This document shows positions 39,837 through 45,975 of a DNA stretch of 64,000 nt, one piece after another; the first letter of the stretch is position 1; each line of letters opens with the position of its first letter. Source of the DNA: Rhodospirillaceae bacterium. GTDB taxonomy: Bacteria; Pseudomonadota; Alphaproteobacteria; MPNO01; UBA2964. The stretch covers positions 62,001 to 126,000 of the forward strand of contig PBIN01000007.1 of NCBI GenBank assembly GCA_002720855.1, in the 5' to 3' direction. The position numbers and the translations under genes were made by a program. The notes below the pieces were generated by a model, which saw nothing but the letters and a program-made list of their open reading frames with translations, ran no database searches and was not told where the DNA came from.

Positions 39837-40225
39837 TGATGGCACCTACAATCTCATCACTCGATCATATCGTTCTCACCGTAGCGGATATCGAAATTAC
39901 CTGTGAATTTTATAAACGTACTCTTGGTTTCGTAGCCGAAACTTTTGCTTCGGGACGAAAAGCGCTCAAATTCGGCAATCAGAAAATCAATCTCCATGAA
40001 AAGGGGAGGGAATTCGAGCCGAAGGCAGGTTATGCCACGCCCGGGTCAGCGGATTTGTGTTTCCTCACCGATGACCCGGTTCAGGAGGTCGTAGCTCACT
40101 TGGCTAGTGCGGGGGTATTCGTTATCGACGGTCCGATAAAAAGAACCGGGGCGGCAGGGCCGATTATGTCAATTTACTTTCGCGATCCCGACGAAAATTT
40201 AATTGAAGTTGCCAATCAGCTTTAA
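39836..40225 (+). CDS. VOC-family (glyoxalase/bleomycin-resistance fold) protein
   Basis: 129-residue protein of the vicinal oxygen chelate fold: SLDHIVLTVADIEITCEFYKRTLGF (His ligand in LDHIVL) and YFRDPDENLIEVANQL with Glu near the C-terminus, plus an internal His in INLHEKGREFEPKAGYATPGSADLCFL. Virulence-family VOC proteins and glyoxalases share this pattern. The ATG at 39836 overlaps the MFS stop; an ATG follows at 39839. The end overlaps the convergent ArsC-family gene by 4 bases. Confidence 0.85.
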   Translation: MMAPTISSLDHIVLTVADIEITCEFYKRTLGFVAETFASGRKALKFGNQKINLHEKGREFEPKAGYATPGSADLCFLTDDPVQEVVAHLASAGVFVIDGPIKRTGAAGPIMSIYFRDPDENLIEVANQL

Positions 40226-40572
40226 GCGTCGGCCTTAATTTTTTCCTGAACATCCGCGGAAAACCCAACCATCCGGGCATTTCCGAGATCGAAAACCGGC
40301 CGTTTGATCAAAGTTGGGCTTTCAGTGAGAAGACTGGTTGCGTTCCCCGATTCTGCCTTGTTCTTGTCTGTCTTCGATAGCTGTCGCCAGCTCGTTCCAC
40401 GCTTGTTGAGAAGTGTTTCGATACCGATTTCGTTGAGCCAGTTCGCTACTGTGTTTTGATCCAGGCCGTCTTTTCGAAAGTCGTGAAATTCGTGTTCGAT
40501 GCCTTCGCTCTCCAACCATTTCAGAGCTTTTCGACAGGTATCGCAATTTTTAATTCCGTAAACTGTTACCAT
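40222..40572 (-). CDS. ArsC/Spx-family protein (YffB-like)
   Basis: 116-residue thioredoxin-fold protein. It has Cys10-Asp-Thr-Cys13 in YGIKNCDTCRKAL and LNKRGTSWRQL, LIKRPVFDLG as in YffB/ArsC family reductases. Unlike glutaredoxin-dependent ArsC (single Cys), it has a CxxC, as in the Spx/YffB group; glutathione-dependent thiol reductase activity is proposed for YffB. It is in a minus-strand run with the CoA-binding and isopenicillin N synthase-like genes. Confidence 0.85.
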   Translation of the reverse strand: MVTVYGIKNCDTCRKALKWLESEGIEHEFHDFRKDGLDQNTVANWLNEIGIETLLNKRGTSWRQLSKTDKNKAESGNATSLLTESPTLIKRPVFDLGNARMVGFSADVQEKIKADA

Positions 40573-42738: not shown

Positions 42739-43239
42739 ATGGCTGATGATAGTGGTGCCACGCTTGCAGATGTAATGCCGGAGGAAGCTACCGGAACAGC
42801 GCCTCCTGCCGAAATTGTTGAAGCGCCGGTCTACGAAAAGGTTGTGGATGACCAGGGTCGTTCTTATGCCACGGGGAAACGGAAAAACGCTGTCGCCCGT
42901 GTATGGGTAAAGCCCGGAAATGGTCAAATAGAGGTCAACGGACGTGACGGTAACATTTACTTCAGTCGTCCGACATTGCAGATGATTATCCGTCAGCCGT
43001 TCGATGTCGCTGAACGTAAAGATCAGTTCGACGTGTATTGCACGGTTAAGGGTGGTGGTTTGTCAGGACAGGCTGGCGCCGTTCGGCACGGAATTTCAAA
43101 GGCGCTGACATTGCAGGAGCCTGAGTTAAGAGGGGCGTTGAAAAAGGGCGGTTTCTTGACTCGTGACTCACGTGTTGTTGAACGGAAAAAATACGGTAAA
43201 CCAAAAGCCCGCCGTAGCTTCCAATTCTCGAAACGGTAA
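42739..43239 (+). CDS. rpsI: 30S ribosomal protein S9
   Basis: 166-residue S9. The first 45 residues (acidic, [19 protein letters not shown]) form an N-terminal extension common in alphaproteobacteria; the core begins [28 protein letters not shown] and ends [17 protein letters not shown] as expected for the P-site-contacting tail. In related genomes argC often follows directly; here about 2.7 kb of other sequence intervenes. Confidence 0.96.
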
Positions 43240-43430
43240 ACTAAAGAAACATACACAAAGAATTATAGAACTCGAACGCCTTTCGGGGTGGAGAATACTG
43301 TAGTTTAAGGACGTGTGAGGTCAGGTATCGGCCTTAGCCAAGTGAGAGTTGTCCTTTTTTCTGTTTCCTGAAATTGACTTTTTACTATGGAAAATCGGTT
43401 CATTCGGAGGCCCCCTACCTTTTTCAAAAA

Positions 43431-43448
43431 GTTATGTTATAACATAAC
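43431..43448. promoter_or_regulatory. Zur-box-like perfect palindrome
   Basis: The 18-base sequence GTTATGTTATAACATAAC is a perfect inverted repeat. It differs from the alphaproteobacterial Zur consensus recalled from comparative work (GATATGTTATAACATATC) only at two symmetric outer positions, with the ATGTTATAACAT core intact. It lies about 190 bases after the rpsI stop and 107 bases before a possible short ORF, so it would control the flavoprotein-transporter cassette. The rest of 43240-43550 holds no gene; a weak stem (AAGGAC 43308-43313 with GTCCTT 43352-43357, then T-run) may end rpsI transcription. An ArsR-type operator is the alternative reading. Confidence 0.7.
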
Positions 43449-43554
43449 ATCATTTTCTAGATGGGCAATGTGAGCCCGTTTGCAATGAAGGGCGTGGCCA
43501 TAAAACATCGGCAGTATTAACAGCCTAGGAATAGGACAAGGAGGCAGAAATATA

Positions 43555-43761
43555 TTGGGTAGCTACAAACTTTGGTTGCCGTGTTTCAAAGCACAATTCC
43601 GATCGCCTGTTGAGGCACATTCCGCTAAGAGATCCAATCTGTACCTTAACGATACGATGGAACAGCGGATAAAAAGTTCTCAAAATTTTTGGGTGATGAA
43701 ACCTCCCTGTTTTTGCCCAAGCGATTCTAATAAACGAAGAGAAACCGCGGTAAATGGATAA
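43555..43761 (+). CDS. Possible short ORF ahead of the flavoprotein gene
   Basis: Open frame of 68 codons starting with TTG, nine bases after a good GGAGG. It ends in an 8-base overlap (ATGGATAA) with the flavoprotein start, as in translationally coupled genes. The product would be basic with three cysteines (one near residue 10, two in PPCFCPSD). I do not recognise it. It could be a leader or a real small protein; composition is not strongly coding. Confidence 0.35.
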   Translation: MGSYKLWLPCFKAQFRSPVEAHSAKRSNLYLNDTMEQRIKSSQNFWVMKPPCFCPSDSNKRRETAVNG

Positions 43762-44821
43762 ACACCCTGTGATCATTGTTGGGTCTGGGCCGGCAGGTGT
43801 TGGTGTCGCGGCACTGCTTTCGCAATGTGCAATACCGGCTGTTATTTTAGAGCGCGGCCGGATCGGTGAGAGTTTTTACCGCTGGCCAAAAGAAACACGG
43901 TTTATCTCACCGTCATTCACCGGAAATTTTTTTGGCGCGGTAGACTTAAACGCGATTACGCCAAAAAGTTCTCCCGCTTTTGGTTTGCAAAGGGAGCATC
44001 CTTCAGGCCGCCAGTTCACACAATATCTGCGAGATGTCGTGAATTTCCACGCACTCGAAATAAAAGAGAACGTCGACGTCAAGGATTTTAGGGTCACCGA
44101 TGATGGGTCAATCGCGCTGATAACCAGTAAAGGGAGATTTTTTTGCCGCGCCTTGATTTGGGCTGGTGGTGAGGCTCAATATCCAAAGAAAATTCCGCAT
44201 ACGGTGCGCGTGGGTTCAACCTATAAAACATTCCCCGAAGGCCATCATGTCATAATTGGTGGCGCGGAAAGCGGCATGGAGGCAGCTTATAATCTGATTA
44301 GAAACGGTTCTACTGTAAGCGTAATTGACCCATCTGCGCCTTGGGAAAAGTGGTACAGCGATTCAAGTTATGGCCTAAGCCCCTACACCTTTGCGCGTGT
44401 TCGGTTTATGGAAAAATCCGGCAAAGTAGAATTCATCCCCGAATGCGCCGAAGACATTTCTGAAAACACGGTCCGCACAGAAAGCAATTTTATTCAATTG
44501 CAGTATCCGGCCATCGATTCTACAGGATTCGATACCAAGCAAAGCCTCGCTGGCAAACTGTTTCACTTTGTCGATGGCCATGCAGAACTCACCGAACATG
44601 ACGAAAGCACGAAGCACAGAAACGTTTATTTGGTTGGGCCGACAGTCCAACACGACAAGGCCATATTTTGTTTTATTTATAAATACCGTCAGAGATTTGC
44701 AGTCGTCGTCGACAATATATTGAACCGGTGGGGAGAATATAGTCCGGTAATTGCCGAGTATGCTGACCAGGGATTTCTTCTCGATGATTTGAGTTGCTGT
44801 GATGGGGAATGCGCTTGCTGA
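43754..44821 (+). CDS. FAD-dependent NAD(P)-binding oxidoreductase with Cys-rich tail
   Basis: 355-residue flavoprotein. It has the FAD dinucleotide fold at the N-terminus (PVIIVGSGPAGVGVAALLSQ, ERGRIGESFYRWPKETRFIS) and a second NAD(P) fold near residue 175 (HHVIIGGAESGMEAAYNLI). The group includes ArsO-like, YpdA-like and flavin monooxygenase-like proteins. The last eight residues are CCDGECAC, four cysteines able to bind Zn(II), Cu(I) or As(III). No paired CxxC redox site is seen in the NAD domain. It is followed after 28 bases by an ACR3/BASS transporter and preceded by the Zur-type box. The reaction is unknown. Confidence 0.8.
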   Translation: MDKHPVIIVGSGPAGVGVAALLSQCAIPAVILERGRIGESFYRWPKETRFISPSFTGNFFGAVDLNAITPKSSPAFGLQREHPSGRQFTQYLRDVVNFHALEIKENVDVKDFRVTDDGSIALITSKGRFFCRALIWAGGEAQYPKKIPHTVRVGSTYKTFPEGHHVIIGGAESGMEAAYNLIRNGSTVSVIDPSAPWEKWYSDSSYGLSPYTFARVRFMEKSGKVEFIPECAEDISENTVRTESNFIQLQYPAIDSTGFDTKQSLAGKLFHFVDGHAELTEHDESTKHRNVYLVGPTVQHDKAIFCFIYKYRQRFAVVVDNILNRWGEYSPVIAEYADQGFLLDDLSCCDGECAC

Positions 44822-44849
44822 GAGATTCTAGAGTTGGGCTACCACAAAC

Positions 44850-45821
44850 ATGACCGATCGGCTCACAATCGTCATTCTAATCATTGCTATACTTTCCGGG
44901 TCGACGGTTGGATTAGTATATCCCCAAACCACTGCTCTACTCGCCAGTCAATTAGATAACATGATTTTGTTGTTGGTATTTCTAATTTTCTTTGAGGTGC
45001 GGGTCCAAGACTTTTTCACAAGCTTACATCGTGTTCACTTTATCATTGTGGCTTTGATCGTAAATTTTGTTGTCATACCCGGAATTGGGTTTGCCATATC
45101 CACTGCTTTTCTATCGAGCCATCCGCTGATTGTATTCGGGCTAACTATTTATTTCATGGCACCTTGTACCGACTGGTTTTTGGGCTTCACGCATTTGGCG
45201 AAAGGCAACACCGCACTGGGCGCGGCACTTTTACCGGCGAATTTGGTTATCCAGTTATTGCTTTATCCGGTGTATCTGAATCTTTTTGGCATAGGTGAGT
45301 TAGAAGGCGATGTAAGTAAAATCCCTGATACTCTTCTGCAATGGTTTCTAATTCCACTACTATCGGCTTTCATCCTACGTATTGTTGTGGAGAGGCTCGC
45401 AAATAAAATACAGGTCAGTCGCTTCAGTTCTTTCCTCTCATGTGTGATACCGATTTTATTGGCTCTACTGGTAGGGCAAATATTTGCGAGCAATATTAGT
45501 AAGTTAATTACTTACGCCGATATTCTGCCGCTGGTCTTATGTGCGATTTTAGTCTTTTTCCTTTTGACCCTCTCTTTGAGCGAATTGTTGGCCAGGCTGT
45601 TGAGACTGAATTACGGTGATCATGTACTGCTGACTATGACGACGTCGGCCAGGAACGCGCCTCTCATGCTCGCGGTTACCATTGCTGTTTTGCCGCACCA
45701 ATCTCTTATGCATGCTGCAATTATTCTCGGTATGATAATCGAACTCCCTTATTTGGTCGCTTTAAACGTAGTCTTCCAACGAAGACTGGCTAAGAAAAGA
45801 ATGATGTCAGTCCAATTTTGA
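44850..45821 (+). CDS. ACR3/BASS-type membrane transporter (arsenite or organic anion efflux family)
   Basis: 323-residue membrane protein with about ten hydrophobic segments, of the bile acid:sodium symporter superfamily near the ACR3 branch. The MAPCTDWFLGFTHLAKGNTALGAALLP segment holds the Cys that is essential in ACR3 arsenite pumps, and the TM9 region reads TTSARNAPLMLAVTIAVLPHQSLMHAAIILGMIIELPYL, with Glu in IELP. It might export arsenite, or a metal-related anion. Together with the flavoprotein it forms a two-gene unit under the palindrome at 43431. Confidence 0.82.
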   Translation: MTDRLTIVILIIAILSGSTVGLVYPQTTALLASQLDNMILLLVFLIFFEVRVQDFFTSLHRVHFIIVALIVNFVVIPGIGFAISTAFLSSHPLIVFGLTIYFMAPCTDWFLGFTHLAKGNTALGAALLPANLVIQLLLYPVYLNLFGIGELEGDVSKIPDTLLQWFLIPLLSAFILRIVVERLANKIQVSRFSSFLSCVIPILLALLVGQIFASNISKLITYADILPLVLCAILVFFLLTLSLSELLARLLRLNYGDHVLLTMTTSARNAPLMLAVTIAVLPHQSLMHAAIILGMIIELPYLVALNVVFQRRLAKKRMMSVQF

Positions 45822-45975
45822 CGCGACTTCAATAGATCGTAGGGATAAAAAGCAAACTTTATTTTGGAATAAAATTTCGTTAGATGCATTAGGTTGCCCA
45901 GATTGTGGTTAGTGAAGCGTCAACCCATTTTTGTTCTGTATGATATTGTCTGCACCGAAAAGGGTCGGATTTAGA

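What the first reader, a model, noticed from the sequence alone, without database searches (positions are those of the whole stretch)
43754..44821. Four cysteines in the last eight residues of a flavoprotein
The C-terminus CCDGECAC follows a full two-fold flavoprotein without a classical CxxC redox motif. A soft-metal or arsenic-binding tail on an FAD enzyme next to a transporter suggests delivery of a metal or metalloid-bound substrate, or a redox relay like the C-terminal tails of some mercuric reductases and large thioredoxin reductases.
Basis: partly seen in the sequence, partly recalled or inferred. Interest (0 to 1): 0.6.

Follow-up and report, generated by a model that had tools for sequence, protein, structure and literature searches.

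The report
Zinc-starvation flavoenzyme with cysteine tail
The four-cysteine end is the near-invariant signature of a poorly understood flavoenzyme family often found with zinc-shortage genes in bacteria and archaea, and here its gene sits behind a predicted zinc-repressor site and is paired with an unusual transporter related to arsenite pumps.

Summary
ORF 43754-44821 (355 aa, Pyr_redox_3) ends LDDLSCCDGECAC and has no CxxC. In 60 of 60 full-length rows (window included; several phyla, archaea too) C-x3/4-C-x1/2-C lies at or near the end; C306 is also 60/60. The tail defines a family and does not depend on the adjacent transporter. The context points to zinc rather than arsenic: about half of the relatives examined lie among COG0523 GTPases, Fur/Zur-type, ZnuABC/Azt, HisI, CysS, FolE2, DksA or S14 genes. 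A perfect 18-bp palindrome upstream (43431-43448) matches the alphaproteobacterial Zur core; exact core matches occur at three places in this genome, the other two at zinc-uptake genes. PDB 3d1c (S. aureus 'putative monooxygenase') is a solved member. Next closest is bacillithiol disulfide reductase (Bdr), which lacks the tail; the window protein lacks Bdr's active Cys. Best reading: an NAD(P)H-FAD thiol enzyme of zinc starvation whose mobile tail carries Zn(II) and/or electrons between a membrane partner and clients. That mechanism is inferred. The partner is usually a small two-helix or FeoB-like protein; only the window and three relatives examined have an SBF/ACR3-related transporter, whose substrate is open.

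The parts
43431..43448 (.). Zur-type operator: perfect 18-bp palindrome GTTATGTTATAACATAAC, overlapping core TGTTATNNNATAACA (43435-43449)
   Evidence: Perfect 9-0-9 palindrome upstream; 1 match in the window at up to 3 mismatches against 0.01 expected; exact core at 3 places in the genome, two others at zinc-uptake genes.
43754..44821 (+). Flavoprotein of the 3d1c family (Pyr_redox_3), 355 aa, with Cys tail
43781..43798 (+). FAD-binding GSGPAG (residues 10-15); Bdr has a Cys in this motif, this protein has Ala14
   Evidence: Sequence; profile alignment with Bdr; column conservation.
44258..44275 (+). NAD(P)H-binding GGAESG (residues 169-174)
   Evidence: Sequence; invariant/near-invariant columns.
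44669..44671 (+). Cys306 in signature IFCFIYKYRQRF
   Evidence: 60 of 60 rows; aligned to Ile in S. aureus Bdr.
44795..44818 (+). C-terminal tail CCDGECAC (residues 348-355)
   Evidence: predicted flexible.
44850..45821 (+). SBF/ACR3-superfamily transporter, 323 aa, PCTDW subgroup; C106 (45165-45167) and E298 (45741-45743) align with Cys and Glu of a true ACR3

Best explanation
The gene pair is a zinc-starvation operon repressed by Zur when zinc is plentiful. The first gene encodes an NAD(P)H-dependent FAD enzyme of the Bdr/TrxR/FMO fold. Its invariant Cys306 and mobile C-terminal Cys3-4 tail form a thiol relay: electrons from NAD(P)H via FAD keep the tail (or a partner's zinc-site cysteines) reduced, and the reduced tail binds Zn(II) and passes it between the co-encoded membrane protein and clients such as COG0523 GTPases. 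In this lineage the membrane partner is an SBF/ACR3-related transporter standing where most relatives have a small two-helix protein or a FeoB-like permease; it most likely moves zinc or a zinc ligand. Shown by computation: tail and C306 conservation, zinc context of about half of the relatives, Zur-type box, a membrane gene downstream. Inferred: repression by Zur, zinc binding by the tail, electron flow through C306, hand-off, transporter substrate.
For: Zur core TGTTATNNNATAACA is exact at 3 places in 3.58 Mb: this operon, a ZnuA/AztC-type operon and znuA. A 1-mismatch site precedes a Fur-family gene followed by an ABC ATPase and ABC-3 permease. Like boxes precede the gene in L003, L004, L007, L049, L054, L056 and L073. 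Caulobacter Zur sites have the same core (PMC4176598, passage). 27 of 51 genome loci hold at least one zinc marker (26 with one of 60 bits or more) and 21 hold two or more; 12 of 12 further loci do. COG0523 is in 21 loci against 0.3-0.4 expected at this genome's density, a rough control. L023 has Fur, ZnuA, ABC parts, flavoprotein, COG0523, CysS and HisI in one run. A membrane gene lies downstream on the same strand in 48 of 51 loci. Closest solved folds: 3d1c Z 41.5, Bdr Z 29.6. In C. glutamicum a Zur-controlled oxidoreductase (cg0795) is divergent from a COG0523 gene and the authors suggested they may act together (PMC2823685, passages); whether cg0795 is this family could not be tested.
Against: No binding or activity data for any member was found. 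24 of 51 genome loci show no zinc marker, including the three closest relatives L002-L004; only 9 of these 24 are short (under 6.5 kb). L002 has no box within 4 mismatches. The box is 305 nt from the start codon (about 270-285 nt in L003 and L004, where a 70-aa ORF fills the gap). At up to 1 mismatch the box count (6, two of them the same box here) is not above the reversed-pattern control (5); one site, C15:371268, is by no recognised zinc gene. The window clade sits on a long branch (1.5) and lacks a Cys present in 50 of 60 rows, so its function may have shifted. 3d1c is annotated a monooxygenase, and FMO folds score Z 25-26.
Confidence: 0.55

Rival explanations
1. Monooxygenase of zinc-starvation metabolism: the enzyme hydroxylates or oxidises a small molecule (for example a zinc ligand), the transporter moves that molecule, and the tail is a zinc-responsive on/off switch or a structural element.
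For: Family member 3d1c is named a putative monooxygenase; FMO folds (4a9w, 4usr, 4usq) Z 25-26 and N-hydroxylases (SidA, PvdA, DfoA) Z 22-24. SBF transporters commonly carry organic anions (recall). Zinc control as in the best explanation.
Against: Bdr scores higher than any FMO in fold (Z 29.6) and in profile (90.1 against 49.7 bits). No biosynthetic gene was seen to recur beside the gene, but no metallophore-synthesis model was searched.
Confidence: 0.2
2. Arsenic enzyme: the CCxxxC tail binds As(III), like ArsR-type Cys sites, and the ACR3-like transporter exports arsenite or an arsenical.
For: Transporter's best NCBIfam match is acr3 (65.9 bits) with Cys and Glu aligned. Flavoprotein matches ArsO weakly (33.9 bits). 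The genome has no ACR3 over the cut-off. An ArsC-family gene lies 3.2 kb upstream. The genome's ArsR-type protein has a comparable CCDGQPEVC.
Against: ACR3 cut-off is 282.8 bits and the transporter scores 66; ArsO cut-off 425. The upstream box is Zur-type. The genome's ars group lies on another contig and has its own MIP channel. Relatives lie with zinc genes.
Confidence: 0.07
3. Zinc-site repair reductase: the flavin centre re-reduces disulfides formed in empty zinc sites of other proteins under zinc shortage; the tail is the catalytic thiol relay, as in high-Mr thioredoxin reductase, and does not itself ferry zinc.
For: Bdr is a disulfide reductase and the closest named fold. Invariant C306 plus a flexible Cys tail resembles tail relays of TrxR and MerA (recall).
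Against: Four Cys in eight residues is more than a two-Cys relay needs. The downstream membrane partner is unexplained.
Confidence: 0.15

Closest known systems
PDB 3d1c, S. aureus Mu50 NP_373108.1, 'flavin-containing putative monooxygenase'
   Same: Same family end to end, tail SCCEVSCTC included (E 7.2e-67; profile E 2.9e-117; Z 41.5 over 344 residues).
   Different: 36-38% identity. Only the entry's title was seen; its gene neighbours were not examined (a related S. epidermidis plasmid copy has FeoB-like and zinc-binding-protein neighbours).
Bacillithiol disulfide reductase Bdr/YpdA (7a7b, 7a76)
   Same: FAD plus NADPH domain layout; profile alignment 2-338 of 369; Z 29.6.
   Different: Bdr has a Cys in its GxGPCG motif, here Ala14; Bdr has Ile at C306's column and lacks the tail. 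TIGR04018 score 65.5 against cut-off 339.9.
Zur-regulated oxidoreductase Cg0795 with COG0523 GTPase Cg0794 (C. glutamicum)
   Same: Oxidoreductase under Zur beside a COG0523 gene; joint metallochaperone role proposed in PMC2823685 (passages).
   Different: Whether Cg0795 belongs to this family could not be tested.
SYNPCC7002_G0132, Zur-controlled FAD oxidoreductase (PMC4628125, passages)
   Same: FAD enzyme induced by TPEN and in the Zur-type mutant, beside a GTPase-like gene.
   Different: Not this family: no phmmer match. The protein read as G0132 is the FAD/NAD(P)-binding CDS at 150589-151854 of pAQ7, picked by gene order. It belongs to a second flavoprotein family also found in L019, L026, L037, L048 and L060.
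ACR3 arsenite exporters (compared with L085, Sphingopyxis)
   Same: Superfamily, aligned Cys and Glu.
   Different: 22% identity; PCTDWF in place of RCIAMV; 66 bits against cut-off 282.8; Zur-type box instead of an ars operon.
Mercuric reductase and high-Mr thioredoxin reductase C-terminal tails (recall)
   Same: Mobile C-terminal cysteine arm on an NADPH-FAD enzyme.
   Different: No CxxC and no Pfam dimerisation domain listed for this protein.

Membership tests
3d1c-type flavoprotein family | End-to-end similarity including the C-terminal tail | tested here: met
   Residues 1-355 align to 2-369 of 3d1c, E 7.2e-67.
3d1c-type flavoprotein family | Invariant C306 and C-x3/4-C-x1/2-C tail | tested here: met
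   60 of 60 full-length rows, window included.
Zur regulon (zinc-limitation response) | Operator matching the alphaproteobacterial Zur core, shared with zinc-uptake genes of the same genome | tested here: met
   Exact at 3 places in the genome: this operon and two zinc-uptake loci; core as in Caulobacter.
Zur regulon (zinc-limitation response) | Derepression in low zinc and Zur binding | not testable with these tools
   Needs expression and binding assays.
Bdr/YpdA | Active Cys in the first GxGxxG motif | tested here: not met
   Ala14 in GSGPAG; Bdr GGGPCG.
Bdr/YpdA | NCBIfam TIGR04018 above cut-off | tested here: not met
   65.5 against 339.9 bits.
Thioredoxin reductase (low Mr) | CxxC redox motif; TIGR01292 above cut-off | tested here: not met
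   No CxxC; 21.1 against 343.45 bits.
ArsO flavin monooxygenase | NF040505 above cut-off | tested here: not met
   33.9 against 425 bits.
MerA / high-Mr TrxR | Pyridine nucleotide-disulphide dimerisation domain and CxxxxC active site in the FAD domain | tested here: not met
   No such Pfam domain among the 9 listed at E 0.01. C348-C353 does have CxxxxC spacing but lies in the tail.
Flavin-containing monooxygenase | Oxygen-dependent substrate hydroxylation | not testable with these tools
   Fold similarity only (Z 25-26).
ACR3 (for 44850-45821) | TIGR00832 above cut-off | tested here: not met
   66 against 282.8 bits.
ACR3 (for 44850-45821) | Cys of the PCT region and Glu near the end (functional roles recalled) | tested here: met
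   C106 and E298 align with L085 ACR3.
SBF superfamily (for 44850-45821) | PF01758 above cut-off | tested here: met
   49.2 against 24.3 bits.

The most novel reading that the evidence does not exclude
A NAD(P)H/FAD-driven zinc shuttle: a Zur-controlled flavoenzyme that loads and unloads Zn(II) on a redox-switched C-terminal Cys tail and docks with interchangeable membrane partners. In this alphaproteobacterial lineage the partner would be a zinc permease (or zinc-ligand carrier) in the bile-acid/ACR3 transporter superfamily, the first one as far as I recall.
Probability: 0.2. Interest if true: 0.85.

Novelty: new variant of a known kind. Interest (0 to 1): 0.6.

Why it matters
Zinc is redox-inert, so a dedicated NAD(P)H-flavin enzyme recurring in zinc-starvation clusters from haloarchaea to Klebsiella plasmids (matches in 499 Klebsiella and 20 Escherichia plasmid records; two of these copies were read, both with the tail) points to a missing redox step in zinc supply. 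Knowing that a 2008 structure (3d1c) belongs to it, and that cysteines 306, 349, 353 and 355 are the ones to mutate, makes the question testable. The interchangeable membrane partner suggests candidate zinc transporters of two unrelated superfamilies.

Tried and rejected
Arsenic reading: considered because of the ACR3-like neighbour; set low by the Zur-type box, failed ACR3 and ArsO cut-offs and a separate ars group.

Tail tied to this transporter: rejected; only the window and three of 51 relatives have it.

Cyanobacterial G0132 as a member: rejected. Viral contigs: none of 19 pattern matches encoded a relative. Rfam over 43200-45900: 0 matches at gathering scores. Promoter/terminator scan: no excess over shuffles. 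A 70-aa ORF sits between box and flavoprotein in L003 and L004 but not in the window. Transporter fold model was weak (pLDDT 62.5 from 4 sequences), so no fold search was run with it. Start-stop overlap as proof of coupling: weak; an ATG overlaps the last tail codons or stop in 24 of 51 loci but could partly follow from the codons themselves, and the window has none. I first placed the extra 50-of-60 Cys column near residue 260; one search's consensus puts it between P144 and H149 (FxGSELCxH).

The gene is rare among the host's kin: 0 of 12 other family genomes, several of them incomplete; 1 of 384 other class genomes at E 1e-30; 0 of 397 other genomes of a phylum draw that shares genomes with the class draw. 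It was probably acquired. The two PCTDWF transporters of other alphaproteobacteria (L080, L081) had only their ORFs listed, with no family search of their neighbours.

Literature: the ten searches (open-licence PMC only) listed no paper that I recognised as describing this family's function or tail; subscription journals are not covered. Passages only were seen of PMC2770081, PMC6103462, PMC2823685, PMC4628125, PMC7174638, PMC13339975, PMC4176598 and PMC7029138; abstract and passages of PMC12288471. Term look-ups in PMC5387054, PMC10563805 and PMC6336718 gave nothing relevant. The rest were seen as listings only.

Full report
What was claimed and what is there. The ORF at 43754-44821 encodes a 355-residue flavoprotein that ends CCDGECAC, with no CxxC anywhere. 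It matches Pyr_redox_3 strongly, and none of the NCBIfam models shown (25 of 28 hits) above its cut-off.

The tail is a family signature. One scan of genome contigs gave 51 relatives from Alphaproteobacteria, Planctomycetota, Lentisphaerota, Gemmatimonadota, Acidobacteriota, Chloroflexota, Bacillaceae, archaea and others. With plasmid and other records there were 65 rows including the window; five were truncated or broken and dropped. In all 60 remaining rows C-x3/4-C-x1/2-C lies at or near the end. Columns: C348 54, C349 59, C353 60, C355 60 and C306 60 of 60. A further Cys, in FxGSELCxH, is in 50 of 60 but absent in the window. The tail is thus independent of the neighbouring transporter.

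Context elsewhere is often zinc limitation. In annotated plasmids the gene sits with cysS, folE2, dksA, carbonate dehydratase, Fur-type repressors, zigA or other COG0523 GTPases, hisI, S14 or aztABC, in varying sets. In S. epidermidis it is next to a zinc-binding-protein gene, a FeoB-like gene and a GTPase gene. These 11 plasmid records were chosen from 538-542 hits, and some are near copies. A phmmer marker scan (E 1e-6, ABC ATPases not counted) found at least one zinc marker in 27 of 51 genome loci (26 with a marker of 60 bits or more), two or more kinds in 21, and in 12 of 12 other loci; L074 was not scanned. COG0523 is in 21 of 51 loci and Fur-type in 16. At the density of the window's own genome (3 strong of 4 cobW matches; 3 Fur matches) about 0.3-0.4 each would be expected, a rough control because methods differ. 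24 of 51 show none; 9 of these are under 6.5 kb, 15 are not. The 64-kb window itself has no other marker apart from ABC ATPases. The Klebsiella plasmid pLVPK cluster was already called Zur-regulated by Haas and others (PMC2770081, passage).

Regulation here. The region upstream holds a perfect palindrome GTTATGTTATAACATAAC at 43431-43448, expected 0.01 times in the window at up to three mismatches. In the whole genome the 18-mer within three mismatches occurs at three places, against one for the reversed control. The exact core TGTTATNNNATAACA occurs at the same three: this operon, the start of a ZnuA/AztC-type operon, and just upstream of a His-rich znuA. A one-mismatch site precedes a Fur-family gene that is followed by an ABC ATPase and an ABC-3 permease, a zur-znuCB layout. 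At up to one mismatch the total (6) does not exceed the reversed control (5), and one site (C15:371268) is by no recognised zinc gene, so the weight rests on the exact sites and where they fall. Caulobacter Zur sites share the core (PMC4176598, passage). Among the closest relatives L003 and L004 carry the box and L002 does not. The box lies 305 nt before the start codon; in L003 and L004 the gap is about 270-285 nt and holds a 70-aa ORF.

The membrane slot. A membrane protein gene lies downstream in most loci: a small two-helix protein in 41 of 51, a FeoB-like protein in 4, the SBF transporter in 3, none detected in 3; in the 12 other loci FeoB-like in 9, none detected in 3. All 48 lie on the flavoprotein's strand and run past its stop. 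Two-helix topology is read from sequence. An ATG overlaps the last tail codons or stop in 24 of 51 loci, which allows translational coupling but does not prove it; in the window there is a short gap instead. On the tree the slot types cluster (9 changes against 21.4 in shuffles), and the SBF group is one clade with support 100/100 on a long stem; its deeper place is unsure.

The transporter. It is an SBF-superfamily protein far below the ACR3 cut-off. It shares PCTDW[FY] with proteins of Staphylococcus, Macrococcoides and Planococcus that lie beside an ArsR/SmtB regulator and a cation diffusion facilitator, or a ZIP transporter. This hints at divalent metals but rests on three records of one bacterial order.

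Structure. The AF2 model is good (pLDDT 86.6) except for the tail (residues 350-355 below 50). The best solved match is 3d1c, Z 41.5, then Bdr, Z 29.6, then flavin monooxygenases, Z 25-26. Bdr's profile alignment stops before the tail, and its motif Cys corresponds to Ala14 here (that this Cys is the active one is recalled). In 3d1c the aligned chain reaches residue 368, so the tail may be ordered in the crystal.

Mechanism. Conservation, regulation and context support a zinc-starvation enzyme (my estimate about 0.9). That the tail binds Zn(II) (about 0.6) and that the flavin passes electrons to C306 and the tail (about 0.55) are inferences. The most economical picture is a redox-maintained zinc arm working between a membrane partner and zinc clients. 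A pure disulfide reductase and a monooxygenase remain open.

Verdict. The family is represented by an unexplained structure. The pairing with an ACR3-like transporter behind a Zur-type box is the unusual variant.

Noticed in passing
L016:1151-1387 and 40 more of the 51 relatives, downstream of the flavoprotein: A family of about 75-aa two-helix proteins (EWLGQTIAS..W..SVFVYG....GDWLQL.AASAWL.ANI); L016's copy has no Pfam match.
   Followed up: partly
L019:3641-4906, L026, L037, L048, L060; L063:15590-16855: A second flavoprotein family in the same clusters; by gene order it includes SYNPCC7002_G0132, reported Zur-controlled and TPEN-induced.
   Followed up: partly
L029:5252-5887, L024, L025, L033, L035, L038, L044: An uncharacterised protein of about 200 aa recurring beside the flavoprotein; L033's copy has no Pfam match.
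   Followed up: no
G000 contig C14, L093:4103-7921: A Fur-family gene with an ABC ATPase and ABC-3 permease is divergent from an arsR / low-Mr-phosphatase / MIP channel group; the ArsR-type protein carries CCDGQPEVC near its end.
   Followed up: partly
L003:3793-3997 region and L004:3780-3990 region: A roughly 70-aa ORF (NLATYEDWKHCIT.LCGIPLTP) between Zur box and flavoprotein, missing in the window.
   Followed up: no
L075:5001-6029 (Haloarcula halophila plasmid): The flavoprotein gene is unannotated and its reading frame is broken; intact copies exist in other haloarchaea.
   Followed up: no
L087:1167-1469: A 100-aa His-containing exported-looking protein without a Pfam match is the first gene behind the Zur-type box of the genome's second zinc-uptake operon.
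   Followed up: no
window 40222-40572 (-): An ArsC-family (PF03960) protein 3.2 kb upstream of the finding, four genes away on the other strand.
   Followed up: partly
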